A stretch of 55,735 nt of DNA from assembly GCA_013202975.1 (NCBI GenBank), contig JABMQY010000054.1, positions 1 to 55,735 on the forward strand, in the 5' to 3' direction. The notes beneath the pieces are model-generated. The model did no database searches. It worked only from the letters and a program-made list of their open reading frames with translations, and was not told the origin of the DNA. Numbering within the stretch: the stretch's first letter is position 1; every line of letters begins with the position of its first letter. Below are positions 1 to 15,744 of this stretch, piece after piece. This DNA is from Candidatus Saganbacteria bacterium. GTDB taxonomy: Bacteria; Margulisbacteria; WOR-1; XYC2-FULL-46-14. The translations under genes and the position numbers were made by a program.

Positions 1-77
1 ATTTTCTTTGTACCATCACGAAATTGATTTGTGGATAGACTTTTTCCTAACCCCTAACCCCTAACCCCTAAAAAAGG

Positions 78-108
78 TGAAATTTCCCATTTTTCTTCAC
101 GATATATA
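78..108 (+). promoter_or_regulatory. sigma-28-like promoter copy 1: TGAAATTTC ... CGATATATA
   Basis: TGAAATTT at 78, GATA at 101 (23 nt start to start); same spacing as five other copies. Confidence 0.65.
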
Positions 109-126
109 TATATAGAGGTGATTTAT

Positions 127-1515
127 ATGCAAACGCAAAGAGTAGGTTTAGGATTATTGGGTTTTGGAAGAATGGGGGAGGGGATTGCAAATCGTTGTAT
201 TAGAAATGGTGTTAAGGTTGTAGCTTATGATCCCGGTAAAATTCAATCCGGAGAATTACAGCCAAAAGAGGGTTTGTCGGTTGCTTCCTCAGTTCAAGAA
301 TTAGTACAGCAATTACCAGCGGGTCAGCCAAGAATTGCCTGGGTAATGGTTCCGGCAGGAGAGATTACCAATAATGCAGTTGCCGGATTAGAGCAGGCAA
401 TGGATCCAGGGGATATCATAATTGAGGGTGGAAATTCAAAATGGCTTGAAACAGAAAAACTTGCTTTGGCATTGGCCGATACTGGCGTCAATTTCTTATC
501 TTCTGGTACTTCTGGAGGGGTAGAGGGCGAGCAGGTAGGTTATTGTCTTATGTTAGGTGGAAAGCGATCTGTTTTTGAACAGGTTGATAGCTTAGGAATC
601 TTTTCTTCAATTGCAGCGCCAAATGGATATGCCCATGTTTCTGAATTTCCAGAAGGGGCGGATTTAGTAAAGTCTAATCACAATGGAATCGAGTATGTTG
701 AAGAGAGCGCTTTGGGTGAAGCTTTTTCTGTTTTATATTATTTGTTCAATAAAAATTTACCTCGCTTAGCTGATCTTGCAGGAGTTTGGTCTAATGATCC
801 AGTTGCTGGTGGTTATTTAGTAGAGTTGGCACAAAGGGCTTTTCAAGATCAAAAGCACTTTAAAACAATTGGAGCAAAGATTGGAGGGGGGGCCACCGGA
901 AATTGGACCAAAGAATCCGCTAAAAAGGCAAATATTGCTTCTCCAGTGCTTTTGATATCAAGTTTGCTGCAAAGAGAATTGTCTAGCATGGAGGATGATT
1001 ATTTTAGAAACAGGGTTGTTTCTGCTTTGCGCTGGCAGTTTGGACGGCACCCTTATGAAGAGCGTTTAGTAAAAGATACTGCTCCAGAAGTTTCCTATGT
1101 TGAGGAAGAGATTGAGTTAATGAAAATTAGAAATGCCTGTTTGGCGGCAAGGGCTTATGCTATAGCAGAAGGGTTAACTATCTTGAATGCATATAGAGAT
1201 CGCTATCAGCTTGATTTAGCTCAAATTACTAAACTTTGGGGACATGGTTCAATTATCAGAAGTGCCTTAATGCAGAAATTTGCAGATGTTTTGGAAGAGG
1301 ATGGAAAATTAGAACTTGACGCAGATATTGTTGAACCAAAGCTTGAATCCTTGTCTTCAGATCTTTTCTATTTCTTGCGTATTAATTTCCCAGAGTTAGA
1401 ACTTGGCGAAATTCAGAATTTCATTCATAACTTCTCTCACGTGAACATTTCAACTTGCAGGGGTGGGTTTGCTTATTTGCTGATCTCTTCGGTTTTTGGG
1501 AAGATAGAGCTGTAA
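127..1515 (+). CDS. 6-phosphogluconate dehydrogenase family protein (divergent)
   Basis: Rossmann GLLGFGRMGEG near N-terminus, EGGNSKW, SGTSGGVEG, KSNHNGIEY (cf. KMVHNGIEY of 6PGDH), GATGNW. ATG at 127 preceded by GAGGTG. Confidence 0.88.
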   Translation: MQTQRVGLGLLGFGRMGEGIANRCIRNGVKVVAYDPGKIQSGELQPKEGLSVASSVQELVQQLPAGQPRIAWVMVPAGEITNNAVAGLEQAMDPGDIIIEGGNSKWLETEKLALALADTGVNFLSSGTSGGVEGEQVGYCLMLGGKRSVFEQVDSLGIFSSIAAPNGYAHVSEFPEGADLVKSNHNGIEYVEESALGEAFSVLYYLFNKNLPRLADLAGVWSNDPVAGGYLVELAQRAFQDQKHFKTIGAKIGGGATGNWTKESAKKANIASPVLLISSLLQRELSSMEDDYFRNRVVSALRWQFGRHPYEERLVKDTAPEVSYVEEEIELMKIRNACLAARAYAIAEGLTILNAYRDRYQLDLAQITKLWGHGSIIRSALMQKFADVLEEDGKLELDADIVEPKLESLSSDLFYFLRINFPELELGEIQNFIHNFSHVNISTCRGGFAYLLISSVFGKIEL

Positions 1516-1600
1516 GTAGAAGCTGGAAAAATAATCTTGAAGCTGGAAATCCCCGGTTTTCCTATCCCCTATAACCTAAACCCTATAACCTAAAACAAGC

Positions 1601-1630
1601 TGAAATTTTCTCCATAATATAGCGATAAAA
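1601..1630 (+). promoter_or_regulatory. sigma-28-like promoter copy 2: TGAAATTTTC ... CGATAAAA
   Basis: TGAAATTT at 1601, GATA at 1624 (23 nt). Confidence 0.65.
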
Positions 1631-1634
1631 ACAC

Positions 1635-3161
1635 ATGAGAATAGCGCAAATGCAGCAATTTGCCCAGCTTTTTAAAAGAGGGGATATTGCCAGGGGTTTT
1701 AGCCAAAATGTTTTGGGTAAAACTGTACACGATACTTTAGCCTTCAGTGAATATGCCGGACGCTTTGTTAATCTTTTGGGTTTAAGAGGAAGTGAAGGTA
1801 ATTGTGCGGATGTTGGCTGTGGTCCGGGACATATTGGAATTGCTGTCTCGAACGAGATGGATGGTGGAAAAATGTTTCTCTTGGATCTTTCCTCTCAAAT
1901 GGTTGAATTGACAGAAGAAAATATTCAGGCGGGCGGGTGGAACAACAATGTTCGTCATGAAACCCTTGTTGCGGATGGTCAGGATATTAGGGAGGCCCTT
2001 GGTGGGATTGAGCTGGATGCGGTTTTTTCTCGCCACGTAGTTCAGTTTATGCAGGAGCCGCACCTCTTTTTTAGCGGAGCCTATAATCTCCTTAAGCCCT
2101 TTGGAAAAATGGCATTTAGTTTGATTGGGTTTTCGACTTTTAATTTTTCAGATAACAATCTCTCAAATAGTTTGTTGCAAAACCAGTTTCACGCACGACT
2201 GCTTTGGGCTGCTCTGCAGGAATTACCAGATATATTAAGCCAACTTCCATCTTCTGCAATTAATGATCTGATTTATCAGGGGATTCTTGTAAAGGAGTAC
2301 AACGGAATTTTTGTTTCTCCAAAAGCTATCCTTCCCAAAATGGATAAGATTAGTATGTTTGCCGAATTGAGAAAGGCCGGAATTCCACAAAGTGCAATTA
2401 CTTATCTTGTAATGGGAGAGATCCACACCGTTGGTTTTAAACGGTCTTTTTCTGAGCGAGTAGGGAGTATCCCGATTCCCGGGATCTGGAATATTTTTGA
2501 CCGGATGGATTATGCTTCTCGTGTACTTGCAGTAAAAAGAATTTATGAGCGGGCCTTTGGCCGCGATCTGAACCGGCCGATTTATACCGAAGATCCTCTA
2601 TTTGTAATTACCAAAGAGGCCCCCGGATTTGGCTCTTTTGTAGATATGGAACAGATGGAGTTTGCTCCGATCGGATTAGTTAGACCGGAGTCAACTGAGG
2701 TTGTAGAAGGTGTTTCTCAAATAAGAATTGTAAAGGAGAGTTTTGATCAGAGTTCCGAGCAAATAGCTGCACTTGCTCTGCAGTACGGTTATGACGCTTG
2801 GCGGGTCAGGGGTTTTGATATCCAGCATGCTTCGGCACATCTGGTTAATCCTCCCAAAGAATTTTTGCCAATGAATTTTGCAACTTTAATTATGCAGGGG
2901 AATAGATATACCTTTACCTCATCAGAAAAACCTTCTTTGGCGGATCAAGAGGCCAGAATAGTAACTCCCTATAGCATAGTTTTGGATAAAGGGGAGGGAT
3001 TGCCGCGCGAAGGGCAGCTTTTTTATGAGGGGCGGCCCCTTTCTGATTTTGAAAAATTCAGATTAATAGAAATAATGTTTGAGCCATCTCCCTGGTATTT
3101 TGCATTTAAGGATACACAGGGGAATCCGGTCCCAAAATATCTTATTGTAAACCCGTATTAA
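1635..3161 (+). CDS. SAM-dependent class I methyltransferase domain plus uncharacterised middle region; ends at TAA immediately before a radical-SAM CxxxCxxC motif in the same frame
   Basis: ADVGCGPGHIGIAVS SAM-binding motif I; ends ...PKYLIVNPY*. Confidence 0.75.
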   Translation: MRIAQMQQFAQLFKRGDIARGFSQNVLGKTVHDTLAFSEYAGRFVNLLGLRGSEGNCADVGCGPGHIGIAVSNEMDGGKMFLLDLSSQMVELTEENIQAGGWNNNVRHETLVADGQDIREALGGIELDAVFSRHVVQFMQEPHLFFSGAYNLLKPFGKMAFSLIGFSTFNFSDNNLSNSLLQNQFHARLLWAALQELPDILSQLPSSAINDLIYQGILVKEYNGIFVSPKAILPKMDKISMFAELRKAGIPQSAITYLVMGEIHTVGFKRSFSERVGSIPIPGIWNIFDRMDYASRVLAVKRIYERAFGRDLNRPIYTEDPLFVITKEAPGFGSFVDMEQMEFAPIGLVRPESTEVVEGVSQIRIVKESFDQSSEQIAALALQYGYDAWRVRGFDIQHASAHLVNPPKEFLPMNFATLIMQGNRYTFTSSEKPSLADQEARIVTPYSIVLDKGEGLPREGQLFYEGRPLSDFEKFRLIEIMFEPSPWYFAFKDTQGNPVPKYLIVNPY

Positions 3162-3884
3162 GATTGTGCTTTTCGATGTAAGCCCTGTTCAAGAATTCCA
3201 TTCTTTTCTAATCCCAAACAAGGTTATATGAATAACACAGATCAGATAATTGCCGAAGTATTAAAAACTATTGAGGATCCAAACGAGGTTCACTTTATCA
3301 ATATGATTACCGGAAGTCAGGCGGATGAGCAGAAAGATTTTCAGATGTTTTCTGATATTATCAATCGATTCAGGCAATCGGGCTTTACTGGCGCCGAGTT
3401 CGGTCTTTATTCTCAGCATATTTCTGACCCTAAAATGATGCAGGCCCTCTCTGATTTAGGGGTAGTCACTTTTTGCGTAACAATGGAAATTACATCAGAT
3501 GAACAAAGGTCAAAGCTTTATGGGAGAAAGGGAAAGGGGAGAAGGTCTTTTAACGATTATATGGAGATGCTTAAAAAGGCTGAATCACTGTTTCCCTATG
3601 TAAGCATTAGTTTGGTTTTAGGGCATGAGGATTCAAGTGAGATGAAGGCCAATTTAGATCGTATGGCGGGGGATACCGGGGCATTTATTAATCACTTTAT
3701 TCCGCGCATCTTTTTACCTCGACAGCATGAGATCCTTCACCCTGAGGCGCTTGGTCGGGGATTGGCCTATTATGTTGAACTATGCCGCCATATAGAAGAT
3801 ATCAATGCAGGACGAAATACTTTTGGTAATTTTTTTGATGAGAGATTTAATATTAAAAAGTTTGAAGCGAGGTTTAGGTCTTAA
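3162..3884 (+). pseudogene. Radical SAM domain segment (CAFRCKPC) in frame with the upstream methyltransferase; the ORF caller starts only at ATG 3228, after the cluster motif
   Basis: Manual translation of 3162-3230 gives DCAFRCKPCSRIPFFSNPKQGYM, a CxxxCxxC motif, leading into ORF 3228..3884; no stop between 3162 and 3884. Confidence 0.6.
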
Positions 3885-6800
3885 ATGCCAACCGTAGTAG
3901 GAAAATACGGAAAATTAGCATTTGGACCAAAAGGGATTGGCGTACTCGACAAGCATGGGATTAGACATACTTTTCACCCCCAGGTAGAAAAAGATGCTAC
4001 GGAAATCAGAATTCCCAAAGAACAAATACAGAGTCGTGATAAGGTTCGGGGCTATAGCATCGATTCTGCTGGAGCCGATGTGCGCGATGATGCAATTTGG
4101 GTTGAGCCGAATGAGCTAGGCTGGCGTGCCCTGGTCTCTATTGCCGATGTTACCGAATTATTCAAATTTGGTTCAATGATAGACATTGAGGCAAAAGAGC
4201 GAACTTCAAATATTTATCACTCCTATGATGTAATTCCCATGCTGCCGGATCCGTTGGCGGCTTTAGCCAGTCTGGAAGAGGGAGAAGAGCGGCTGACGAT
4301 TACAATGGATATGCAGTTTGATCACAATGGTAAATTAGTAAGCTATGAACCGCGCAAAACCTATTTAGAAAATGAAAGAGCGATGTCCTATCATGATGCC
4401 GATACAATTAGGACATCAGATGACAGCGATATTGGGACTAATGTTAATTCTGCACTTAATTTGGCCCTAAAACGTTTAGAGCATCGAGCTGAGCGAAGTT
4501 GTGTCTTTTTTGATCAAGAAAAGGGGCTCTATACCGGAGAGGATGGAATTGTTAAAAAGGTTCATGATTATGAGAAGTTCTTTCCGTTTTTAGTTGTGCA
4601 GGAGCTGGCAATTGCGGCTAACTGTGCAGCTGGTAGATTTATTAGTCAGCCCAGTGTTGCGGCAATCTATCGCTGCCTGGATGCCAAAGATGGGATTGCG
4701 GTTAATTTGCTTGGGACCGAGCGTTATCTTTTTAAGGAAGAATCTTTTACAGCTAGAGGGGCTATTTATTCACGTAATAATGTTGGACATCATTCGTTAG
4801 GATACTCTCGTTATGTTCATTTTACCTCTCCAATTAGAAGGTATGTTGACACAATTGTGCATAGAATATTAAAAGCGAGTATGGCGGGCAAATCTTTTAA
4901 TCCAGGATTAGATCCAATTGCAGAAAGATGTAGTTTTTACCCTGTTTATGCCAGACGAATGATTACCCAGGCCCGTTTAGAAGATGGACAGATAAAAGAA
5001 GAGGGGCTGGTCAAAATAGCTAAGAAGAGGTTTGGGTTTCTTTTGGATCGGGCCTTGCAATCAGAAGATGCTGATTTAGACCTTATACTGGATGCGCTAG
5101 AACAAAGGGAGATTACACCTCAAAATCTTTTGACGCTAATTACCTCTCATCAAAACGGTCGGGTAAATGAAATTTTGTCAGATTTTTTCTATATGTACAG
5201 AACAAAATTTGACTATGTAAGAATATTAAAAGTGATTGCCGGTGATATGGGATGGGACCCGCCTGCATTTATGACAAAGACAAACCGCTTTGGACGAGAT
5301 CCGGAATATGCTTATGTTATTTCTGTAAATGGCAAAGAATATGCTACTGATTATCCCAAGAGCAGTAAATTTGTTCCAAAAAACCAGGCTGCTTATCTGT
5401 TTTTAAAGGATTATTGTTCCGGTACCTTGGTTCGCTTTTCTGATCCGGGATTCAGGGTGTTTAAGAACAAGGTTAAATACTATGAGAAATTAGATTTTAA
5501 GCCCTTCATGCAGGCATTAAACCGAGCACTAAGAGATGATTCTGATGAATTAGACCAAATATTACTGGCGCTAAAAAGGAAAAAACTTAGCTCAGATAGG
5601 CTTTTGGTATTATTTAGATATAAAGATAACGTGAAAGCAAGAAAGCTTCTAATGGATCATTTTCAATCAATGCAAGAAGATATTTATTATGAAAGGCTAT
5701 TAAAGCAAGTTGCACAGAGGGAAAGAATTAGAAAGCTTAAGCTTGTAGCAAGGAAAAGTGGTGGAAAACAAGAAGGGTGTGAGTTTTGTTATATGGGAGT
5801 TGTTGAAGGGGCAGAGGTATGTAGTTCAAAGTGGAGCCGAGATGAAAAAAACAAGGAGAGAAGATCAGCTTATCGTTTTTTGCGAGATCTTTTACAAGAT
5901 AATCTTAAGTCATTTTCTCCTTTAGGGGGAAAGACAGTCGACTTAGAGACGGTAGTAGCGCGAGAAAGGTTGCAAAGAATAAAGGCGTCACAGTTTGAAG
6001 GGGAACTTAATGCTGCTATTAAATCAGGCTCAGAGGATCTAGATCTTCTACTTGAAGTAGCCCCCAAAAGTCTTTCTGAGAGGACCATTGCTCTGCTCAT
6101 TTTAAATATGGAGGATAAAAGTGAAAGGATTAAGCCGGTTTTAGACAGATTCTTTGAGTCATTTAAAAAGGGATTTTCATATGAAAGGGTTATGAATTGT
6201 ATGGCCTCCGAATTAAGATGGAGCCCGCCGGCATTAAATTCTAGAATGAATGGAGATGTCCGCGAATATCGTCTGGCGGTAACTGTTGATGGGGATTTTC
6301 TTAGCAGCGAAAATTATTCTGTAGTTTTTGAAAAGAAGAAGAAACGTGAAGCGGCGGCCTATGTCTTTTTAAAAGATTATTTGGAGGGGAAATTGAGAGT
6401 CTTTTTGCAGACTGAGTTGACCCAAGAGATTGGAGTAGAAAATGAACCCTTTGCTAGTGAGGGGAGTCTTGTTTTTCAAAAGATTCTTGCCGCTCTTTTA
6501 GAAGAAGAGCAGGAGGCTAAAGAGGATCCGATGGGATGGTTCAGGTTTTTTTGTGCTAAAAATACAAATTTTAATGCCCAAATTAGCTATAATGAAGATG
6601 CTGATGGCTGGAGGGTTATGATTACAACAGGGCCCGGAAAGCCAAGAAGGAGTTTTGTTGCAAAAGATCCGGATGCAACTGTTGCAGAAAAAAAGGTGGC
6701 TTTGAGCTTCTTTTCTTGGTATAAGCCGCATAAATTGGTTTCGAATATTTCAAAGCTTACACCTTCCGATTTGTTTTCTTTAGTTGGCAGGTTAAAAGAG

Positions 6801-7076
6801 GATCCGGCAGTTGTTTCTTTTGTATCAGCGTTTTTTAAGGAATTCAGGATTAGATTTAATTATTCTGTGGCCTTAGAGATATTGTCAGAACAAATGGGCT
6901 GGGGAGAGCCAAAATACTCTGATTCGCAGTGTAAATGTGAAATAGGAGGGAAGATAATGACTTCAAGATTAACGGCGGAAGATGACTCCCCGATTAGGGC
7001 GCAAAAGTTATCTGCCTATTATTTTATTATTGATTACCTGCGTGGTGATTTAACTGAAAAAGGAGTAAAACAATGA
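3885..7076 (+). CDS. RNase II/R (RNB) family exoribonuclease with tandem C-terminal dsRBM-like repeats
   Basis: GYSIDSAGADVRDDAIWVE...SIADVTE, YSRYVHFTSPIRRYVDTIVHRIL (RNB signatures); repeated segments such as WDPPAFMTKTNRFGRDPEYAYVISVNGKEY...KNQAAYLFLKDYCSG. Confidence 0.8.
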   Translation: MPTVVGKYGKLAFGPKGIGVLDKHGIRHTFHPQVEKDATEIRIPKEQIQSRDKVRGYSIDSAGADVRDDAIWVEPNELGWRALVSIADVTELFKFGSMIDIEAKERTSNIYHSYDVIPMLPDPLAALASLEEGEERLTITMDMQFDHNGKLVSYEPRKTYLENERAMSYHDADTIRTSDDSDIGTNVNSALNLALKRLEHRAERSCVFFDQEKGLYTGEDGIVKKVHDYEKFFPFLVVQELAIAANCAAGRFISQPSVAAIYRCLDAKDGIAVNLLGTERYLFKEESFTARGAIYSRNNVGHHSLGYSRYVHFTSPIRRYVDTIVHRILKASMAGKSFNPGLDPIAERCSFYPVYARRMITQARLEDGQIKEEGLVKIAKKRFGFLLDRALQSEDADLDLILDALEQREITPQNLLTLITSHQNGRVNEILSDFFYMYRTKFDYVRILKVIAGDMGWDPPAFMTKTNRFGRDPEYAYVISVNGKEYATDYPKSSKFVPKNQAAYLFLKDYCSGTLVRFSDPGFRVFKNKVKYYEKLDFKPFMQALNRALRDDSDELDQILLALKRKKLSSDRLLVLFRYKDNVKARKLLMDHFQSMQEDIYYERLLKQVAQRERIRKLKLVARKSGGKQEGCEFCYMGVVEGAEVCSSKWSRDEKNKERRSAYRFLRDLLQDNLKSFSPLGGKTVDLETVVARERLQRIKASQFEGELNAAIKSGSEDLDLLLEVAPKSLSERTIALLILNMEDKSERIKPVLDRFFESFKKGFSYERVMNCMASELRWSPPALNSRMNGDVREYRLAVTVDGDFLSSENYSVVFEKKKKREAAAYVFLKDYLEGKLRVFLQTELTQEIGVENEPFASEGSLVFQKILAALLEEEQEAKEDPMGWFRFFCAKNTNFNAQISYNEDADGWRVMITTGPGKPRRSFVAKDPDATVAEKKVALSFFSWYKPHKLVSNISKLTPSDLFSLVGRLKEDPAVVSFVSAFFKEFRIRFNYSVALEILSEQMGWGEPKYSDSQCKCEIGGKIMTSRLTAEDDSPIRAQKLSAYYFIIDYLRGDLTEKGVKQ

Positions 7077-7870
7077 ATATATCAAACGCATATACAAGTC
7101 GTCGATCCGGTCCCATTATTGCCCCTGCAATGGTTGTTAGAACCGATCAGTTTGCAAATGAAAGACGAACAAAATTTGCAAAATCTCCTGCCTATATCCA
7201 GGCAAAGGTGAGAGAGGCTGCCCATGTTCTTGCCCCGCATGTTTCTGCCCTTCACTTTGATATCAATTGCAGTAGCTATGTTAAAGGCCAGCCGCCAAAC
7301 GTCCAGGTCTTCACTCCCAAATTTCTGATGGGACTAAAACAAGAACTTGGCAGGGCAGGGCACGCTCCTCTTTTTGATATCCATATTCTGGGGCAGAACA
7401 TATTGATTTTTGCAGGGTTGTATCTAAAAGCTGCAGACCATATCTCTTTTGAAATGGAGGTAGTGGATCAGGATGCGCAGTCTTTTCGCAGAGTTCTAGC
7501 TATGCTTGCAAAAAATAGTGTTTCAGTAGGAGTGATTGGGAGCAGCTCCAGTTTGATCCAGGATTATTTTCCGTATTTGGATAATGTTGATATTTTAGGA
7601 ATAACTGCAGGAAAAACGGCAGGAAGAAGCGAGGGGCCAATTGACATAAGTTTTGCAGCCCAAAAAGCCAGGGCGTTGATAGAGAATGTCGGTTTTGCCG
7701 GCAGTATAATTTTTCAGATGGGGGTAACAGAAGATTCTATCCCCCAAATTGTTGATTCCGGAGCAAATATTTTGGTTTGTGGAACAAATATTTTTAAAGA
7801 AAGCAAAGAGACCTTTCGTGATGCTGCGGGGATTAAGGCTGCAATTCAAGGATTAGTTGAAATAAGGTGA
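7073..7870 (+). CDS. Ribulose-phosphate 3-epimerase-like TIM-barrel protein with altered active site
   Basis: IIAPAM, LHFDIN, FDIHI, HISFEMEV, GANILVCGTNIF arranged as in RPE; ATG overlaps TGA of the upstream gene. Confidence 0.65.
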   Translation: MNISNAYTSRRSGPIIAPAMVVRTDQFANERRTKFAKSPAYIQAKVREAAHVLAPHVSALHFDINCSSYVKGQPPNVQVFTPKFLMGLKQELGRAGHAPLFDIHILGQNILIFAGLYLKAADHISFEMEVVDQDAQSFRRVLAMLAKNSVSVGVIGSSSSLIQDYFPYLDNVDILGITAGKTAGRSEGPIDISFAAQKARALIENVGFAGSIIFQMGVTEDSIPQIVDSGANILVCGTNIFKESKETFRDAAGIKAAIQGLVEIR

Positions 7871-7900
7871 AATTTCCTGTAAATATGCCAGATATATATG
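7869..7900 (+). promoter_or_regulatory. sigma-28-like promoter copy 3: TGAAATTTC ... AGATATATA
   Basis: TGAAATTT at 7869, GATA at 7892 (23 nt). Confidence 0.6.
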
Positions 7901-7915
7901 AGTAATGGTGCGAAG

Positions 7916-7943
7916 GAACCGAGACGTTTAGTCTCAGGTTCCG
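7916..7943 (+). promoter_or_regulatory. 5' leader hairpin GGAACCGAGAC-gttta-GTCTCaGGTTCC
   Basis: 11-bp stem with a single bulged A, between promoter copy 3 and the ATG at 7989. Confidence 0.6.
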
Positions 7944-7988
7944 AAGCTGAGCTTTATTCGAAAGAACCAAAGGTCCAGGGAGTAATAG

Positions 7989-10900
7989 ATGAGCAAAGTT
8001 AGTCCAATAAGAATACCTTTTAGGCCAGATGGAAAAGGCTTCAAAGCCGATCTGATTCCACAAAGAGGACAGGCCTTATTTGCAAAAAATGTTGCAGAGA
8101 CTATGGATCTCTTTCGCGGCCAGATCCAGGGTTTTCAATCTGATCTGTCAAAAATGGTTCAGAAATCTTCAATCGATCGGTCGCTTCAGGCAATTGGTAA
8201 TGTGCTTGGGACAAAAGTTGCGACTTTTGAAGATATTTATCAGGGGGATTGGAGAAAATCACCGTTTAAGAGTCTGACCCGCTTTGATTTATCAATGTTT
8301 AGTCTGCTTGAAAATCCCGAGGATGCTTTTCGCGCTATTGCCAATCGTCCGCATCGTTTTCCAGTTTATGTTAGCTGGAGCCTGTGCCCCGATTCAAGTA
8401 ACGAAGAAGAGCTGCGGGTATCACTGCTTTTTTCAAAAAGGATGAGCATTGAGGTTGGAGAGCCGGATGACATCAATGGTTCGCGCTCTTTTCCATTACG
8501 AAAAGATGTAAATAGTGCTTTTGCCAAAACCCGAAAACGAGTCGCTCCCTTGCTTGCAATGAATATGAATCCTGCCGGAGACCTGTTGGTTCCTCCTAAG
8601 AAAGAGAGTGTTGCTCAAGGTCTGGTTTCTGAGGCTCTTAATCTGGAGAATATTATTCTACAGGGGTCAAAACTTGAAGTATTACTTGATGACTGCAGTG
8701 AAAGGATCTGGTACGCCAACCATAATACTTACCTTAGTCCGCAGGAGGTGAGGGTTTTGCTTGAGCGGGTTTTTATGGTGAAGAGGTGGTCTAAGGGAGA
8801 TTTGGTTAAGGGGGCAGATCGAATGGCGACAAATTTAGTTGCCCGAACCAAATACCTTTTTGTCGGGTTTGACCAGGTTGTATTGTATGACGGCAATCGC
8901 AGGAGTATTTGTGAAATAAAACTTGATAGCGAAGAAAAAGACAGAATTTTGGGCCTTGTGATAAAAAAGCCTGATCGGCCAAGGGGTGAAGAGGCTGAGC
9001 TGCGCGAGGTTATGGAAGCAGATTTTTCTGGCCGATCTGCTGATAAATACAGCAACTATGTAATGCGTCTTTTAATAAATGATTTGCATCAAAGGAGTGA
9101 AGGGGAAAAGAAGCATAAGCACTTTTCTGTTTTTGACCGGCTAACGGAAAAAATTTCCAAAGAATATGGCAAAGAGGTAGTCTTTCGTTTTTCAGAAAAC
9201 CAGGTTTTTGCTCTGCCTTATACCGGAGAAGTAAAGGATCCCCACCAGCCCGAGTATCTCTTTGTTGTAGAGAGGATTCTGTCAGGCCTGCCCAAGTGGT
9301 TGTTGAATGTTTTGCCGCAAAAAGTCGTTGTTTCGGGGCCGCTTTTTAACTATGCCACTTATGACAAAAGGCGCGGGAAAGAAACTTATGAAATTGTAAT
9401 CAGCCAGCGGCAGGATGTATCCTTTTTACATGACGGGGAAATATTCATTGATAGCAGGCATGGGAGCCTGGAGTTTCCTCAGGAATTTATTTTTGCGTTG
9501 TATAGAAAAGAGAATCGGACCGAAACCCTGACCCATCTTTCTGAAAATTTGTCTGAGTATTATTATCGTCAAATTATGACAGCAGCAGAGAGAAGGGCCT
9601 ATTTTAATTTAGTCCGGGGAAATCACGGGTTACTTTCTTATGAATTAAACATGAATTTAAGGTCAGTGGGTGATATTTTTCATGAGGATTCAAGGGTGCC
9701 CGGGCAGTATAGAGAGCTGATGGAGCGTAATTTTGAGGTTGGTTTTGGCCGATTTATTCAGGGGCAGCTGCCGGATGATGATCCCCGCCATCCATTTTTT
9801 AAAAGAATAGCAGAGAGAGAGACAGTAGCTCTAAAAAAGAAAAAAATATTAAAGCAAAGAGCCCCTAAGCATACAGACGACAGACGATTGACCCTGTTTA
9901 ATACTCTTGAACATCTGGATCCATATGATCATTTGTGGCATGATCCTAAGACATTTCAAAAAATCAAGGTTTCTCCCCAGGCCGCACGATACATGGTTAC
10001 CAAGGGCCTGGAGGCTTTATCAAAAGATCAGGTTGATCAGCGTTATGCTGCCAGGGTTTCTCAAAATCTTTTTGAATTACTAAAGGAATTTGGTGGGGAA
10101 GAATTTGCTTACTTCCTGACAACTTATCAGGCAGAATTTAAAAAGGTTTTGGGGAATGTTTCAGATTTAGGTTTAATTACAATTCTGCCCTCGGTTTTAG
10201 CATCAGTTGATGACGCAAATATTAAGGCCATTTTTGAGAACGAGATTATTCCAATTAGGGCGCTGGTCTTTATTCTTAAGCAGAATCCAGAGTATAGATC
10301 CTACTTATCTGATCAGAGTTTTTGTTTGAGGACATTAGAACTTACCCCGGATGTGAACCTTGATGGCTTTAATTTACAATTACCTATTAAAACAGAGGTG
10401 TCGGAGCGTCCTTTAGTAGAAGAAGAAATACCTTCCTATGAAACAGAAGAAGAATCCCTTTTCAGGCAAGCCTATCAAGAATTAGGTGAGATTCATACGC
10501 TAGATTCAAAAGCTCAACAAAACAAAATCTATTCAAAATTATGGCGGGGCTTAGAGGGTGCACGAGATCAGATTATTGCACGAATTAACCAATGGCAAAA
10601 TAGCTTGACTGCGACACTTGACAGGATTGAGAGCGACCAGATTGTGGCGAGTATTATTTTGAATAATAATTGGTTCTTTTACTTTAGAAGGGGGGGGTCA
10701 TTTTTTAGATCGGTGCGAAGTGAAAATTTAAAAAGAATCATTTTTGAGCTGGCGCCGGATCAATATCTTAAATATTATACATCTTTAGGCTTCCCTTATC
10801 TTGCCGATTTGTCTGTATCTGATGCTGTCAGTTGGCAGTTTGCTCTGGCTGAGAGAGGAATTGACGTTGAAAAGTCTGTCAGAAAGTATTTATTATTAAA

Positions 10901-11522
10901 ATCCGGGGCTGTAAATGTTCAAGCTGCTTTTATAAAAAGATGGAATAAATCTAAGGGGACCCGCTTTTTAGAGATTCTGCGGAAAGCCGGTTATCTTGAT
11001 CAGGATTTTTCAGTTTTGCCGACGTTTGCGAATGTGGGTGATACCGAAAGTTGCTATTCCCTGGCTGCTGATCTTTCTACTGATGACAGAAAAGAGATCG
11101 GTGCGCTTATAAAAGGAGAAATAGGGAGAGAGGATATAAGGCATTTTGATGATGATGAATATGCCCGGGAAATTAAAAAACGAAAAAGGGCAGCATTAAA
11201 AAGAGATTATCTGGAAAATGGATCCAGAACTGTTGAAAGGCTAAGTCTTAATTTTGACAGGGAAGTTGAGGCTCTTGCGATAAGCGAGTTTCTGGGGCAG
11301 AGCTTAGACGAGTCAATTCCTTCGGTTTCGCATCCTGTCGCTTGTAGTATTTTGGGGATTGACAGCCTAACCCCGATTCCTTTGGCTAAAAAAGTGTATA
11401 TTGAGCTGGCGAGGTTGTTTCATCCTGATTCAAGCCAGGATGACGATAACTTAGTGCTTTATAAGAAGATAGAAAAAGCCTGGCAAACCTTCCGAAAGAC
11501 CAGAATTAAATTCAGTACTTAA
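7989..11522 (+). CDS. Large uncharacterised protein with C-terminal J-domain
   Basis: C-terminus ILGIDSLTPIPLAKKVYIELARLFHPDSSQDDDNLVLYKKIEKAWQTF has the HPD tripeptide and J-domain spacing; rest not recognised. Confidence 0.75.
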   Translation: MSKVSPIRIPFRPDGKGFKADLIPQRGQALFAKNVAETMDLFRGQIQGFQSDLSKMVQKSSIDRSLQAIGNVLGTKVATFEDIYQGDWRKSPFKSLTRFDLSMFSLLENPEDAFRAIANRPHRFPVYVSWSLCPDSSNEEELRVSLLFSKRMSIEVGEPDDINGSRSFPLRKDVNSAFAKTRKRVAPLLAMNMNPAGDLLVPPKKESVAQGLVSEALNLENIILQGSKLEVLLDDCSERIWYANHNTYLSPQEVRVLLERVFMVKRWSKGDLVKGADRMATNLVARTKYLFVGFDQVVLYDGNRRSICEIKLDSEEKDRILGLVIKKPDRPRGEEAELREVMEADFSGRSADKYSNYVMRLLINDLHQRSEGEKKHKHFSVFDRLTEKISKEYGKEVVFRFSENQVFALPYTGEVKDPHQPEYLFVVERILSGLPKWLLNVLPQKVVVSGPLFNYATYDKRRGKETYEIVISQRQDVSFLHDGEIFIDSRHGSLEFPQEFIFALYRKENRTETLTHLSENLSEYYYRQIMTAAERRAYFNLVRGNHGLLSYELNMNLRSVGDIFHEDSRVPGQYRELMERNFEVGFGRFIQGQLPDDDPRHPFFKRIAERETVALKKKKILKQRAPKHTDDRRLTLFNTLEHLDPYDHLWHDPKTFQKIKVSPQAARYMVTKGLEALSKDQVDQRYAARVSQNLFELLKEFGGEEFAYFLTTYQAEFKKVLGNVSDLGLITILPSVLASVDDANIKAIFENEIIPIRALVFILKQNPEYRSYLSDQSFCLRTLELTPDVNLDGFNLQLPIKTEVSERPLVEEEIPSYETEEESLFRQAYQELGEIHTLDSKAQQNKIYSKLWRGLEGARDQIIARINQWQNSLTATLDRIESDQIVASIILNNNWFFYFRRGGSFFRSVRSENLKRIIFELAPDQYLKYYTSLGFPYLADLSVSDAVSWQFALAERGIDVEKSVRKYLLLKSGAVNVQAAFIKRWNKSKGTRFLEILRKAGYLDQDFSVLPTFANVGDTESCYSLAADLSTDDRKEIGALIKGEIGREDIRHFDDDEYAREIKKRKRAALKRDYLENGSRTVERLSLNFDREVEALAISEFLGQSLDESIPSVSHPVACSILGIDSLTPIPLAKKVYIELARLFHPDSSQDDDNLVLYKKIEKAWQTFRKTRIKFST

Positions 11523-12280
11523 TATTCGTTGTCTTCTTCGTCCCCTTCTTCTTCAAGGTCTCCAAGTTCGTCTCCATGTTCTGCGAAAAAGGCTGCGGCA
11601 GCATCAAGTTGTTCCTCTGATCCTTTATACTGGCTTACGGTGCTTGCAACGGCAGATCCTTTTTTGAGTGCGGTTATCTCGGAATCAAATTTGTCCTTTT
11701 TAGTTCCTGCAGGAAGTTTTGAAAATGCGATATTTATTTTAGATAGCGCTGCCTTGGTTTCTGGTGCAACAAAGCCAGTAGCTTGAGAGCCACCCATCTC
11801 TTCGTCCTCAGCCTTAGCCTTTGCAATCTCGGCTTCCCCGATAAAAGAGAGGAATTCTCCTATAACAAAGCTGCCAACCGCTCTGTCTTCAACAGAGAGC
11901 ATCTCAATCAAACCGGCCAGTTGTCCTTCGTCACTTAAAATTCCGGCAAAGATATTAACAGATAAAAGATCCTGATTTTGTTCTATAATCAACCCTTCAC
12001 TCAGTGGCTGGTTTTCTGCTAGAACTACGAATTCCCTTCCATTGGTTTCAAATCTCCTGAGCGGTTTTTGGATTAGGCTTGAAAAAACCTCCGCCACACT
12101 TTCAACGGATGAGCCAAGATCGGTTTTGATTCTGCCCTTTACCTGAGCAAGCAGTGTTGGTGCGCCTCCTCTGGTTAGCAGGGGCAGGGTGTCATTTAAA
12201 TAGCGCCTGAGTCTTTGTCCCTCACTCGTCCTTGGCCTTGAAATATTACCGGATCCCATTCCACTTATACCTGATACCAT
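11519..12280 (-). CDS. Hypothetical protein with acidic C-terminal tail
   Basis: 253-aa ORF; C-terminus GDLEEEGDEEDNEY; downstream of 12304..13368 in the same orientation. Confidence 0.7.
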   Translation of the reverse strand: MVSGISGMGSGNISRPRTSEGQRLRRYLNDTLPLLTRGGAPTLLAQVKGRIKTDLGSSVESVAEVFSSLIQKPLRRFETNGREFVVLAENQPLSEGLIIEQNQDLLSVNIFAGILSDEGQLAGLIEMLSVEDRAVGSFVIGEFLSFIGEAEIAKAKAEDEEMGGSQATGFVAPETKAALSKINIAFSKLPAGTKKDKFDSEITALKKGSAVASTVSQYKGSEEQLDAAAAFFAEHGDELGDLEEEGDEEDNEY

Positions 12281-12303
12281 GATTTATTCCTCCTTGCGAT
12301 TTT

Positions 12304-13368
12304 TTATTCCCACTCATCCACTGTATCTTCTGGTTCTGCCTCTTCTTTTGCTTCTTGTTCTTCTGCGTGTGCAATTGTTGCCTCTCTAGCTTCCTTTTCT
12401 CTTGTGGCTGCTTCTGCTGTGTCTTCTGGTCCAATAAGATCAATAACCTGATCTGTTCCTACTCCTCTTTCTGCTCCTCTTTCTGCAGCTGCTGCTTCAT
12501 CTGCTGCAGTAGGTTCCTCTACCTCGCTGTCCTCTCCTGCCTGACTGGCAGCTAATATTTGTTGGGAGAAGGTGGCTTCATCCATTTCTTCTACATAGCC
12601 CCTGATTTCCCCACTATTATCCAGCAGGTGTACGGATTTTAAAAACGATTCCAGCAAATCTTGACAAATAGGATCATTTGAACCTCGCAGTAGAACGATC
12701 ATTTTTGCAACGGTTTTGCCGCTTAGTTCAAGATCTCTCATAATTACTACCGGGGTAATTGTATGGGCAGTTGATAAATTTGAAATTGTTTCATCTAATA
12801 GCATATTTAATGTATTGTATAAGAATATTCTTTCTGATCCATAATCTGAAACGTCGGAATTATCAATGACCCCTTTTAGATAATCTCCTAATATATTATT
12901 ACCCGTACTATATGACATGTTGCGAAGGATCCCGGCATAGGTTTGAACAAGATCAAACATCTGTGCGGTTTGAGGTTGTCCTGAAACAGTAAAATTAACT
13001 ACTTTATCTGCATCGATTCTATCCAGGTACACTTTATCAGACAGACCTTCAAAAAAGTTGTCCCTTATGGCGGTAAAAAGAAGTGTCCCGCTTTCCGGAT
13101 CAGTCGAAACCATTGTTGCAGCAACCAGATCTTCTAAGTCTTGATCGAGGATTGGATTGCCGATGGTTTCATCTGGGGCAGCTTGTTGGATTTTGGCAAT
13201 TGTATGTGATGTAAAGAGATCCTGCATTGCCAGCGCTCCCTGATCACCTACCAGATTTTTCATGGCTTCCAGTGTTTGTTCTCGACTTGCCAGAGCTTTT
13301 TTGAAATCATGTCTCTTAACGATTTGTCTTGTACCGTATGTTGCATTTCCTAAACCTACATTTGCCAT
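12304..13368 (-). CDS. Hypothetical protein with acidic/Ala-rich C-terminal tail
   Basis: 354-aa ORF preceded by promoter copy 4; tail EEQEAKEEAEPEDTVDEWE. Confidence 0.75.
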   Translation of the reverse strand: MANVGLGNATYGTRQIVKRHDFKKALASREQTLEAMKNLVGDQGALAMQDLFTSHTIAKIQQAAPDETIGNPILDQDLEDLVAATMVSTDPESGTLLFTAIRDNFFEGLSDKVYLDRIDADKVVNFTVSGQPQTAQMFDLVQTYAGILRNMSYSTGNNILGDYLKGVIDNSDVSDYGSERIFLYNTLNMLLDETISNLSTAHTITPVVIMRDLELSGKTVAKMIVLLRGSNDPICQDLLESFLKSVHLLDNSGEIRGYVEEMDEATFSQQILAASQAGEDSEVEEPTAADEAAAAERGAERGVGTDQVIDLIGPEDTAEAATREKEAREATIAHAEEQEAKEEAEPEDTVDEWE

Positions 13369-13403
13369 TCTTGTTCCCCCTTAATTTATTTTAATTTTAC
13401 CTG

Positions 13404-13436
13404 TATTTATATCGTACCCTTTTCTAGAAAATTTCA
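13404..13436 (-). promoter_or_regulatory. sigma-28-like promoter copy 4 (minus strand): TGAAATTTTC ... CGATATAAATA
   Basis: Reverse complement: T of TGAAATTT at 13436, G of GATA at 13413 (23 nt). Confidence 0.65.
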
Positions 13437-13500
13437 CTCTATTTTTATTTTTCAACTTTTTGGGGCAAAATCGTCTTTTTGTGGGGATTTCAAATTTTAG

Positions 13501-13533
13501 TGAAATTTCTGGATTTACCGCTCGATAAAAATA
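13501..13533 (+). promoter_or_regulatory. sigma-28-like promoter copy 5: TGAAATTTC ... CGATAAAAATA
   Basis: TGAAATTT at 13501, GATA at 13524 (23 nt). Confidence 0.65.
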
Positions 13534-13534
13534 T

Positions 13535-14620
13535 ATGGGAATAATTAAACCCTGTTATTATAGAAGTGAGCCACCTAAGGATATGCCCCGGGATTGGTAT
13601 CTTTGGCCAAAAAATCAAAAGAGCTGTAAAAAGAAAAGTAAATCTTGTGCTCCTCCTCTTCCCGCTCCCCTTACAACAATAAAAGAGATCAGGGCTTTTG
13701 CAAAAAGGGCGAGAGTGAAAAGTACATTAAAACGACTACCTAACGATAAGAAGGTGCTAAAAAAAATTTTTAAAGAAGCTGCTGCCAAAGGAAGGATTGC
13801 TTGGTTGGGTACTAAGGGTTTGAGTTATAGGGTCAGTGTTTTAGTGGAAAAGGAAATAGCTAGTGCAGCTTCTAATCAGGATGTTTTTGTTGTTATTGGA
13901 ACAGCGCATGGGTTGCCCCGGCAGACAAAATTAGTAAATAGAATTCTAAAATACAGGAAAAAAGTAATCTTAGGGCTTGAGCGTGATAAAAAAACCTGCT
14001 GGAATACCGACCGACAGGCTTTTTGGGATAATTATATATTAACAAAACAAAACAAACCGGTGGTAGTTTCAAAAATGCATAATGGAGTTAGTATTCTTCC
14101 GGCAAAAGAAGTAAGAATAATGAACCAAAGACCCCAAATTGTTTATAACAGATGCCACAACGTAGTTTTGACAGATATCCCCTGCAAGCAGAAGGAGAAA
14201 ATGAGGAGAAGTTTGGATGAATCTGACTATTTATCCGCAAGGGATAATTTTGCTGTGCGCGCCCTTATGCAAAAAAAATCTCCTAACAAAAGGGATGTTG
14301 TTTTTGTAGAATGCGGTGCAACCCATGCAGAGAATCGAAGGCTCCCGGCCTATATCAAACACTTTAATCCTCAGGCAAAGATTGTTTCGGTTATTATTAC
14401 AGGTGGTACAACTGTTACAGCCTTAACTTCTAATGTTGCAATCAAGGAGCTGGGTTGGAATAATAAGAATTTTGTCTTATTTTTAAAAGATTATGAAAAA
14501 AAGGGAGACCGCTTTGTTTCTGGCGATATAATAGTATATATAGCTGCCGGTGAACGGGAAAAGACTGAGGGTGTTAGATCTGGAGTGATCCAGCCGCTGG
14601 TTGCGCCCCTCACTTATTAG
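13535..14620 (+). CDS. Possible ChaN/EreA/TIKI-superfamily-like protein
   Basis: VFVVIGTAHGLPRQTKLVNRIL...VILGLE and SARDNFAVRALMQ...VVFVECGATHAENRRLPAYIKH resemble the H/E...RD...GxxH layout of that superfamily. Confidence 0.4.
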   Translation: MGIIKPCYYRSEPPKDMPRDWYLWPKNQKSCKKKSKSCAPPLPAPLTTIKEIRAFAKRARVKSTLKRLPNDKKVLKKIFKEAAAKGRIAWLGTKGLSYRVSVLVEKEIASAASNQDVFVVIGTAHGLPRQTKLVNRILKYRKKVILGLERDKKTCWNTDRQAFWDNYILTKQNKPVVVSKMHNGVSILPAKEVRIMNQRPQIVYNRCHNVVLTDIPCKQKEKMRRSLDESDYLSARDNFAVRALMQKKSPNKRDVVFVECGATHAENRRLPAYIKHFNPQAKIVSVIITGGTTVTALTSNVAIKELGWNNKNFVLFLKDYEKKGDRFVSGDIIVYIAAGEREKTEGVRSGVIQPLVAPLTY

Positions 14621-15687
14621 ACTAGAGTTATATCCATCTTTATAGAATATGCTTTGCCATTTTTAGGCGGATCAATTTTAATTTTTTGCCTAAGTGTATG
14701 TTCTAATTCAATAGCCAGCTTAGTTTTTACTGCGGCTAATCTTATTTTGTTTGCATCCGGCTCCTCAGCATAAATTCCTTTGGTTTTTGTCAGGTCAGGA
14801 TTAACCAATATGGTTCCATTTCTATCCACATTTAACTCAATTGTAATAACTCCTGTGATTTTATCTCCGATTTTACCCTGCAGGTAATTATAGAGAGGGC
14901 CTTGGGTCAATGCTTCTTTTACAACATCTTGTATTTTTTGCATTTTTTCATTTCGGGTAAGTTGAGGTACAACCGAGACGCCAAATTTGATCCGGGAAAT
15001 TATTGTCTCTAATGGTTTTTCGGCGTAGGTCTTTTTATTAGAAAACTCGGTGGAAACCTCTTTTGGACCTACAATTCGTTGCGCCAGTGATCCGATGCTT
15101 GTTGCTTTTCCTGATTGTGGGCCGGCAATAAGATCTTTGAGAGAGCTATACTCTTTTTCAATCGCACTATCAGAAGCCCCTTGCCAGCCCTTTGCTAGTT
15201 TAACAGAATCAATATAGTCCTTAGTAGCAGATACTAAAGCGGCTTCTCCCTCATCTATTGCAACAGCTTTTAGGGCAGCCATTTTTCCTTGAACTTCTTT
15301 TGGGATATTTGATCCTTTTTTGCTGGAAACCTCTTTATAGCGTTCAATTAATTTTACTGACAGCTCAATTGACTCAGACGAGGTCTTTTCTTTTTTTGCT
15401 ACGATAGCTTTCTTTCCTTGGGCTATTTTGATTTCTTGTCTTAAATCTCGAGCATGTTTTGCAACCAGATATTCATTTTTAGTGTCAAATTCCAGGGCAT
15501 CGTCTAATGTATCTATCGCGGCCTGTAGCTTCTCTGATTTATCAAATGAGAGAGTGTCTGCATTAATCAGCTCTTTTGCTTTGGTTATTGTTTCATCTGC
15601 CCTTTTTATATAAGCGGGCCTTACATCTTCTCTTTTCTCGTCAGATATGTGCTTGTCGCCTTGAGTCGAATTAATAATGTTTGTCAT
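14617..15687 (-). CDS. Hypothetical protein with TonB-C-like C-terminal region, no obvious TM segment
   Basis: KITGVITIELNVDRNGTILVNPDLTKTKG...AAVKTKLAIELEHTL; GGAGG Shine-Dalgarno and promoter copy 6 upstream. Confidence 0.6.
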   Translation of the reverse strand: MTNIINSTQGDKHISDEKREDVRPAYIKRADETITKAKELINADTLSFDKSEKLQAAIDTLDDALEFDTKNEYLVAKHARDLRQEIKIAQGKKAIVAKKEKTSSESIELSVKLIERYKEVSSKKGSNIPKEVQGKMAALKAVAIDEGEAALVSATKDYIDSVKLAKGWQGASDSAIEKEYSSLKDLIAGPQSGKATSIGSLAQRIVGPKEVSTEFSNKKTYAEKPLETIISRIKFGVSVVPQLTRNEKMQKIQDVVKEALTQGPLYNYLQGKIGDKITGVITIELNVDRNGTILVNPDLTKTKGIYAEEPDANKIRLAAVKTKLAIELEHTLRQKIKIDPPKNGKAYSIKMDITLV

Positions 15688-15710
15688 ATTATATTCCTCC
15701 TATTTTATCT

Positions 15711-15744
15711 ATATATATATCGTCAAAGGAAACCAAAAATTTCA
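15711..15744 (-). promoter_or_regulatory. sigma-28-like promoter copy 6 (minus strand): TGAAATTTTT ... CGATATATATATA
   Basis: Reverse complement: T of TGAAATTT at 15744, G of GATA at 15721 (23 nt). Confidence 0.65.

What the first reader, a model, noticed from the sequence alone, without database searches (positions are those of the whole stretch)
78..15744. Six copies of one strictly spaced promoter-like motif define a candidate alternative-sigma regulon of mostly unknown genes
Seen directly: TGAAATTT followed exactly 23 nt later (start to start) by GATA, usually CGATAWAWATA, occurs at 78/101, 1601/1624, 7869/7892 and 13501/13524 (plus strand) and 13436/13413 and 15744/15721 (minus strand). 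Every copy is just upstream of a gene start in the right orientation. I found no good copy in the ribosomal half. Knowledge: sigma-28 (FliA/SigD/WhiG) promoters read TAAA-N15-GCCGATAW. Aligning GAAA of the motif to TAAA gives the same spacing to CGATA. Inference: the 6PGDH-like gene, MTase/rSAM-RNB-RPE operon, J-domain protein, two acidic proteins, ChaN-like protein and 14617-15687 gene are co-expressed by a sigma-28-type factor as one undescribed system.
Basis: partly seen in the sequence, partly recalled or inferred. Interest (0 to 1): 0.8.

Follow-up and report, generated by a model that had tools for sequence, protein, structure and literature searches.

The report
Flagellar-type sigma factor's genome-wide regulon
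The six repeated DNA motifs are promoters of a flagellar-type (sigma-28-like) transcription switch that controls roughly 280 sites in this uncultured Saganbacteria genome; the switch is encoded inside a flagellum-like export machine without filament or motor, so many of the unknown genes it controls may encode proteins that the machine secretes.

Summary
The motif is real: all six copies are exact (one coordinate off by one). They are a corner of a genome-wide system: 203 exact copies against 1 for the reversed pattern, about 280 by weight matrix, with an invariant spacer, just upstream of starts; about a quarter are placed for leaderless mRNAs. Core and n11 gap match sigma-28 promoters. The organism is Candidatus Saganbacteria (WOR-1, Margulisbacteria). 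The likely reader is a diverged FliA/WhiG-like sigma encoded between flgJ-like and flgB genes. Of 31 class genomes, 30 keep this sigma, 30 rod genes, 30 FlhA; flagellin, MotB and FlgM are found in none: a filament-less, stator-less flagellar export apparatus. Regulon proteins are mostly lineage-specific unknowns, plus kinases, LRR and C-type-lectin-like proteins; one N-terminal module is joined to different C-terminal domains; N-termini are Arg-rich. rpoD carries the promoter in 14/14 class genomes tested, so some members are cytosolic. Export of much of the regulon is inferred (about 45%); no transcript or secretion data exist.

The parts
78..104 (+). Promoter copy 1, TGAAATTT-N15-GATA, before the 6PGDH-like gene (ATG 127, Shine-Dalgarno present)
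   Evidence: exact match; sequence; matrix score 42
127..1515 (+). 6-phosphogluconate dehydrogenase-like protein
   Evidence: Pfam NAD_binding_2 and 6PGD
1601..1627 (+). Promoter copy 2; start codon exactly 7 nt after GATA, predicted leaderless
1635..7870 (+). Putative operon: methyltransferase (1635-3161), radical-SAM-like with a match just under the Pfam cut-off (3228-3884), RNB exonuclease-domain protein (3885-7076), ribulose-phosphate-epimerase-like (7073-7870)
   Evidence: ORFs, Pfam; operon inferred from spacing
7868..7894 (+). Promoter copy 3, overlapping the stop of the epimerase-like gene, 94 nt before the next start
7989..11522 (+). 1177-aa protein without Pfam family; J-domain-like C-terminus by reading only
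13410..13436 (-). Promoter copy 4 (minus strand)
   Evidence: matrix score 46
11519..13368 (-). Two acidic proteins without Pfam family (13368-12304 and 12280-11519), putative operon
13501..13527 (+). Promoter copy 5; start codon exactly 7 nt after GATA, predicted leaderless
13535..14620 (+).
15718..15744 (-). Promoter copy 6 (minus strand)
14617..15687 (-). 356-aa protein without Pfam family

Best explanation
The motif is the promoter of a diverged sigma-28 (FliA/WhiG-like) factor: a -35 element GAAATTTY, an invariant 11-nt gap to the -10 element naCGATAw, and an AAAAT element just upstream. The factor is encoded between flgJ-like and flgB genes in a flagellar cluster on another contig. It drives about 280 promoters in this genome, while canonical sigma-70 promoters serve other genes. 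About a quarter of the sites place the start codon where the transcript should begin, giving leaderless mRNAs. rpoD is a constant target in the class, so the factor also feeds the housekeeping sigma. Shown: motif, spacing, placement, conservation, the sigma gene and its neighbourhood, absence of flagellin, MotB and FlgM. Inferred: that this sigma reads the motif. Held separately and less surely (about 0.45): as with late flagellar genes, much of the regulon encodes substrates exported through the filament-less flagellar type III apparatus in which the sigma gene sits.
For: 203 exact sites against 1 control; fixed spacer; 36-bit motif, 122 sites against 1 for the reversed matrix; 116/122 before starts, 27 starts at exactly +7 without Shine-Dalgarno; n11 gap and CGATA core as in sigma-28 promoters (PMC2859248); FliA/WhiG-like sigma in flgI-flgJ-sigma-flgB-flgC and in 30/31 class genomes; only two other sigma-70-family genes, RpoD and an ECF factor; sigma clade with constant DNA-reading segments distinct from true FliA; sigma-70-like promoters enriched before other genes, not before regulon genes; motif before rpoD in 14/14 class genomes. 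For export: rod 30/31, FlhA 30/31, flagellin 0/31, MotB 0/31; complete export gate in G001; lineage-specific products; shared N-terminal module with swapped C-terminal domains; Arg-rich N-termini; kinases and other domains behind N-terminal extensions.
Against: No transcript, binding or secretion data. The sigma scores below the FliA_WhiG cut-off (137 against 189.6 bits). The -35 and extended -10 differ from the classical consensus. The apparatus genes lack the motif, so the link from sigma to apparatus is by gene location only. The one class genome without a detected FliA-like sigma (G024, 79% complete) still has 26 copies of the motif. rpoD, HisG and sugar enzymes are not plausible export substrates, and a few members have Sec- or Tat-like N-termini. 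The N-terminal signal is strong in G010 but weaker in G000 with stricter controls.
Confidence: 0.8

Rival explanations
1. The sigma-28-like factor reads the motif, but it is a general growth-phase or stress regulator detached from export. The regulon is a mixed cytosolic and envelope set and the position of the sigma gene in a flagellar cluster is a relic.
For: rpoD is a constant member; HisG, starch-synthase-like proteins, glutamate-dehydrogenase domain, response regulator and RNA-binding protein are members; the apparatus cluster is not under the motif.
Against: Strong enrichment of lineage-specific proteins, Arg-rich N-termini confined to about the first 40 residues, shared N-terminal module with swapped C-terminal domains; sigma and apparatus genes kept together while filament and stator are lost.
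Confidence: 0.4
2. The motif is read by RpoD or by the ECF factor, not by the FliA-like sigma.
For: No biochemical assignment exists; one class genome (G024) has the motif without a detected FliA-like sigma, though it is 79% complete and also lacks the rod genes found in the same cluster.
Against: Core and gap are those of sigma-28 promoters; upstream regions of other genes carry sigma-70-like promoters and those of the regulon do not; phylum genomes with RpoD but with true flagella have almost no copies.
Confidence: 0.1
3. The motif is not a promoter but a binding site of a transcription factor, or a dispersed repeat.
For: Unusually high information content with few intermediate sites; about 10% of sites are preceded by CCCTA-type repeats.
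Against: Only the blocks are conserved while the spacer is free, so it is not a copied repeat; placement against start codons, with 27 starts at exactly +7, fits transcription initiation; regulon upstream regions lack another recognisable promoter.
Confidence: 0.05

Closest known systems
sigma-28 (FliA / SigD / WhiG) with late flagellar promoters
   Same: n11 gap, CGATA core, AAA and TTT of the -35; sigma related to FliA/WhiG and encoded among flagellar genes
   Different: -35 is GAAATTTY, extended -10 GCC not kept, extra AAAAT element; diverged sigma clade; no flagellin, no FlgM; about 280 promoters including rpoD; many leaderless
Campylobacter jejuni flagellar co-expressed determinants (Feds)
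   Same: sigma-28-dependent genes not needed for motility, linked to host interaction (PMC9856085)
   Different: four genes in a motile organism against about 280 promoters in a class without filament genes; export here not shown
Buchnera basal bodies without filaments
   Same: basal body and flagellar type III export genes kept in the absence of a flagellum (PMC8109811, abstract)
   Different: here a free sigma-28-type factor and a large regulon come with it, in a 2.2 Mb genome
Non-flagellar type III secretion systems (injectisomes)
   Same: export gate and ATPase of common origin (PMC3459982, abstract); possible diverse substrates
   Different: parts are flagellar (rod proteins, P-ring FlgI, FliE, FliK-like); secretin and needle were not searched for

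Membership tests
sigma-28 promoter (TAAAGTTT-n11-GCCGATAA) | 11-nt gap between 8-nt -35 and 8-nt -10 elements | tested here: met
   GAAATTTY and naCGATAw are 11 nt apart with no variation
sigma-28 promoter (TAAAGTTT-n11-GCCGATAA) | core -10 CGATA | tested here: met
   C 80%, G 100%, A 100%, T 84%, A 94%
sigma-28 promoter (TAAAGTTT-n11-GCCGATAA) | -35 TAAAGTTT and GC of the extended -10 | tested here: not met
   GAAATTTY; positions before CGATA are G 40%, A 48%
FliA/WhiG sigma factor (TIGR02479) | curated score cut-off 189.6 bits | tested here: not met
   137 bits, yet its best family of NCBIfam; true FliA of the phylum score 207-237
FliA/WhiG sigma factor (TIGR02479) | gene among flagellar genes | tested here: met
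   flgI - flgJ-like - sigma - flgB - flgC
FliA/WhiG sigma factor (TIGR02479) | FlgM anti-sigma | tested here: not met
   PF04316 in 0/31 class genomes, found in most flagellated genomes of the phylum
motile bacterial flagellum | flagellin | tested here: not met
   PF00669 in 0/31 class genomes
motile bacterial flagellum | stator (MotB) and torque-bearing FliG C-terminus | tested here: not met
   MotB_plug in 0/31; FliG of G000 is 171 aa with only N and middle-domain matches
motile bacterial flagellum | MS ring, rod, P ring, export gate and ATPase | tested here: met
   FliF, FliE, FlgB, FlgC, FlgI, FliH, FliI, FliJ in G000; FliP/Q/R, FlhB, FlhA in G001
injectisome (non-flagellar type III secretion) | outer-membrane secretin and needle | not tested
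   not searched
type III substrate | export dependent on the apparatus | not testable with these tools
   only sequence features: Arg-rich N-termini, shared N-terminal module

The most novel reading that the evidence does not exclude
In Saganbacteria, and perhaps most of Margulisbacteria, the flagellum has become a dedicated protein-export machine whose own sigma-28-type factor, freed of flagellin and FlgM, runs a regulon of about 200-300 promoters whose products are largely fast-evolving exported proteins (kinases, LRR and C-type-lectin-like binding proteins, enzymes behind N-terminal extensions).
Probability: 0.45. Interest if true: 0.92.

Novelty: new variant of a known kind. Interest (0 to 1): 0.8.

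Why it matters
A 36-bit promoter with fixed spacing makes the regulon of an uncultured candidate class readable from sequence alone. If the export reading holds, it gives a ready list of hundreds of candidate substrates of a filament-less flagellum in a lineage near the Cyanobacteria, and makes testable what basal bodies without filaments are for. Even without it, it shows a sigma-28-type factor grown to a global regulator with rpoD as a class-wide target and with leaderless starts built into many of its promoters.

Tried and rejected
Loose pattern with 2 mismatches in the window: no excess over shuffles. 'Motif restricted to the class': suggested but rejected, which finds it in many other families of the phylum, in f19 mostly with a spacer one base longer. 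'All regulon members are exported': rejected because of rpoD, HisG and others. N-terminal signal as a uniform feature: strong in G010, weaker in G000 against lineage-specific controls without hydrophobic N-termini (Arg p=3.5e-5, acidic p=0.06). Motif before apparatus genes: not found. Literature on flagella, secretion or sigma-28 in Saganbacteria or Margulisbacteria: nothing on point in the held library. 'ChaN-like' for 13535-14620: no Pfam match. Structure prediction of unknown regulon proteins was not run, for lack of homologues.
Full report
OBSERVATION. The six sites are real and exact: 78, 1601, 7868 (reader: 7869) and 13501 on the plus strand, 13436 and 15744 on the minus strand. A genome-derived weight matrix finds these six and no other site in the 55.7 kb window, so the ribosomal half is indeed free of them. 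With two mismatches allowed the window shows no excess over shuffles; the signal lies in the exact motif. In the whole genome (2.2 Mb, 139 contigs) TGAAATTT-N15-GATA occurs 203 times against 1 for the pattern read backwards.

ANATOMY. In a 654 kb sample the motif reads AAAAT(A)RVS-TGAAATTT-YY-N12-CGATAtAtAtA, 36 bits in all; 122 sites score 12 or more against 1 for the reversed matrix, with almost nothing between strong sites and background. From the 203 exact sites and the ratio 122/88 this is about 280 promoters in the genome; the sampled stretches were partly chosen for having sites, so the sampled density itself is not used. The spacer does not vary: AAATTT-N14-CGATA 73 times, 0-2 times at any other spacer from 8 to 22 (one search shows the same on the whole genome). 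116 of 122 sites have a start codon within 250 nt downstream (random positions 25%), and 12 of 122 lie inside genes (random 90%). In 27 of 116 the start codon begins exactly 7 nt after GATA, with little Shine-Dalgarno signal; the next most common single distance has 5. Transcripts from sigma-28 promoters begin about there (general knowledge), so these are predicted leaderless; in the window this applies to the genes at 1635 and 13535.

WHAT READS IT. Shifted by one base the motif is GAAATTTY-n11-naCGATAw; the published sigma-28 consensus is TAAAGTTT-n11-GCCGATAA (PMC2859248). The genome has three sigma-70-family genes: RpoD (348 aa), an ECF factor (162 aa) and a FliA/WhiG-like factor. The last is best matched by FliA_WhiG (137 bits, below the cut-off of 189.6) and by the solved WhiG and FliA structures. 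Its gene lies in flgI - flgJ-like - sigma - flgB - flgC. 30 of 31 class genomes have it; the exception, G024, is 79% complete, its best match is RpoD, and it also lacks the rod genes of the same cluster. In a tree the class sigma forms a clade apart from the true FliA of the phylum, with constant DNA-reading segments VPYR(V/I)QVM and LS(R/K)(P/S)KV, which fits a constant but altered motif. Upstream regions of other genes carry sigma-70-like promoters (29 of 110, shuffled 7), those of regulon genes do not (4 of 84, shuffled 9): two promoter classes.

ORGANISM AND SPREAD. Relatives of the sigma name the class as Candidatus Saganbacteria / candidate division WOR-1, phylum Margulisbacteria. The exact motif is in 31/31 class genomes, 12 to 203 copies. 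Beyond the class it occurs in many families of the phylum, in f19 mostly with a spacer one base longer, and is rare in f10-f14, which include the genomes with true flagella. The gene most constantly under it is rpoD: 14 of 14 class genomes tested carry the full motif just upstream (18-40 nt in the 13 where the start was placed); none of 5 outgroup genomes has it there at the class spacing, G042 having the one-base-longer form.

THE APPARATUS. The sigma's cluster in this genome holds FliJ, FliI, FliH, a FliG of only 171 aa, FliF, FliE, FlgC, FlgB, the sigma, a FlgJ-like protein, FlgI, FlgH, FlgA, two FlgF/FlgG-like proteins, an FlhB C-terminal-domain protein and a FliK-like protein (FlgA, FlgH and FlgJ-like by reading only). 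A second cluster, read in G001, has FliK-like, FlgE/F/G-like, FliM, FliN, FliP, FliQ, FliR, FlhB and FlhA. Over the class: rod 30/31, FlhA 30/31, FliM/FliN-type domain 27/31; flagellin 0/31, MotB 0/31, FlgM 0/31. The same searches find these genes in flagellated members of the phylum, which carry two FlhA genes. So the class keeps a basal body with export gate, without filament or stator. The apparatus genes themselves do not carry the motif, as expected if RpoD makes the apparatus and the sigma serves later genes.

THE REGULON. Of 30 random regulon proteins 16 pass a Pfam cut-off, of 20 controls 17 (Fisher p=0.03). Only 7% have a homologue in the sample of the nearest genome against 27% of controls (p=8e-5). 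Of 196 regulon entries from three genomes 144 are singletons. Domains seen include LRR, FGE-sulfatase (C-type-lectin-like), methyltransferases, MutS_V in a 1433-aa protein, and in G010 two adjacent protein kinases whose kinase domain starts at residues 34 and 38 behind a basic stretch, RelA/SpoT with HD, and a UDP-sugar enzyme with a 267-aa extension. About 16 proteins share an N-terminal module of about 70 residues (K-[LI]-[IV]-S-F ... G-x-P-x-A-x-x-L-I) followed by different C-termini. Residues 2-31 of regulon proteins are richer in Arg (G010 0.133 against 0.045, p=1e-14; G000 p=2e-8; G001 p=3e-6), and in G010 clearly poorer in acidic and aliphatic residues, the effect fading after about residue 40. 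Against lineage-specific controls without hydrophobic N-termini the Arg excess holds in all three genomes, the rest mainly in G010. Start calls were mechanical, which adds noise.

HOW IT MOST LIKELY WORKS. Shown: the motif and its distribution, the sigma gene and its place, the make-up of the apparatus. Inferred with good support (0.8): the FliA-like sigma reads the motif. Inferred with moderate support (0.45): by the logic of late flagellar genes, whose products leave through the flagellar export gate, much of this regulon is exported. Campylobacter Feds are a small precedent for sigma-28-dependent non-motility genes (PMC9856085). Clear exceptions are cytosolic members such as rpoD, HisG and probably the window's 6PGDH-like gene. 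How the sigma is held back without FlgM is unknown.

NOVELTY. No paper in the held library describes flagella, type III secretion or sigma-28 in this class; most subscription journals and preprints are not covered. The sigma and promoter are a diverged sigma-28 type and the apparatus is a reduced flagellum. Scale, loss of filament, stator and FlgM, rpoD as target, and leaderless starts make it a new variant of a known kind.

Noticed in passing
window 46-71 and 1567-1594; also L037, L041, L046, L094, L103 upstream of sites: Short CCCTA-type tandem repeats (e.g. CCTAACC x3.7) stand directly upstream of about 10% of the sites (12 of 122 against 2 at an offset control).
   Followed up: partly
L034, L039, L041, L048, L094, L096, L098, L101, L103 (G000), L108, L109 (G001): A paralogous family with a shared N-terminal module (K-[LI]-[IV]-S-F) and swapped LRR, FGE-sulfatase or membrane C-termini; possible diversity-generating targets, not tested.
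   Followed up: partly
G034, G037, G065-G068 and other flagellated phylum members: Genomes with true flagella carry a second FlhA and a second sigma near rod genes, suggesting a separate flagellum-like export system across the phylum.
   Followed up: no
G042-G044 (family f19): The same promoter occurs mostly with a spacer one base longer, a natural case of sigma and promoter spacing shifting together.
   Followed up: no
L033:486-1719: The only ECF sigma gene is followed by a small unknown gene and a CpxP/Spy-like periplasmic protein gene by reading; looks like an ordinary envelope-stress set.
   Followed up: no
L037, L099, L098, L102: Four starch-synthase-related proteins, mutually similar and very different in length, lie under the motif.
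   Followed up: no
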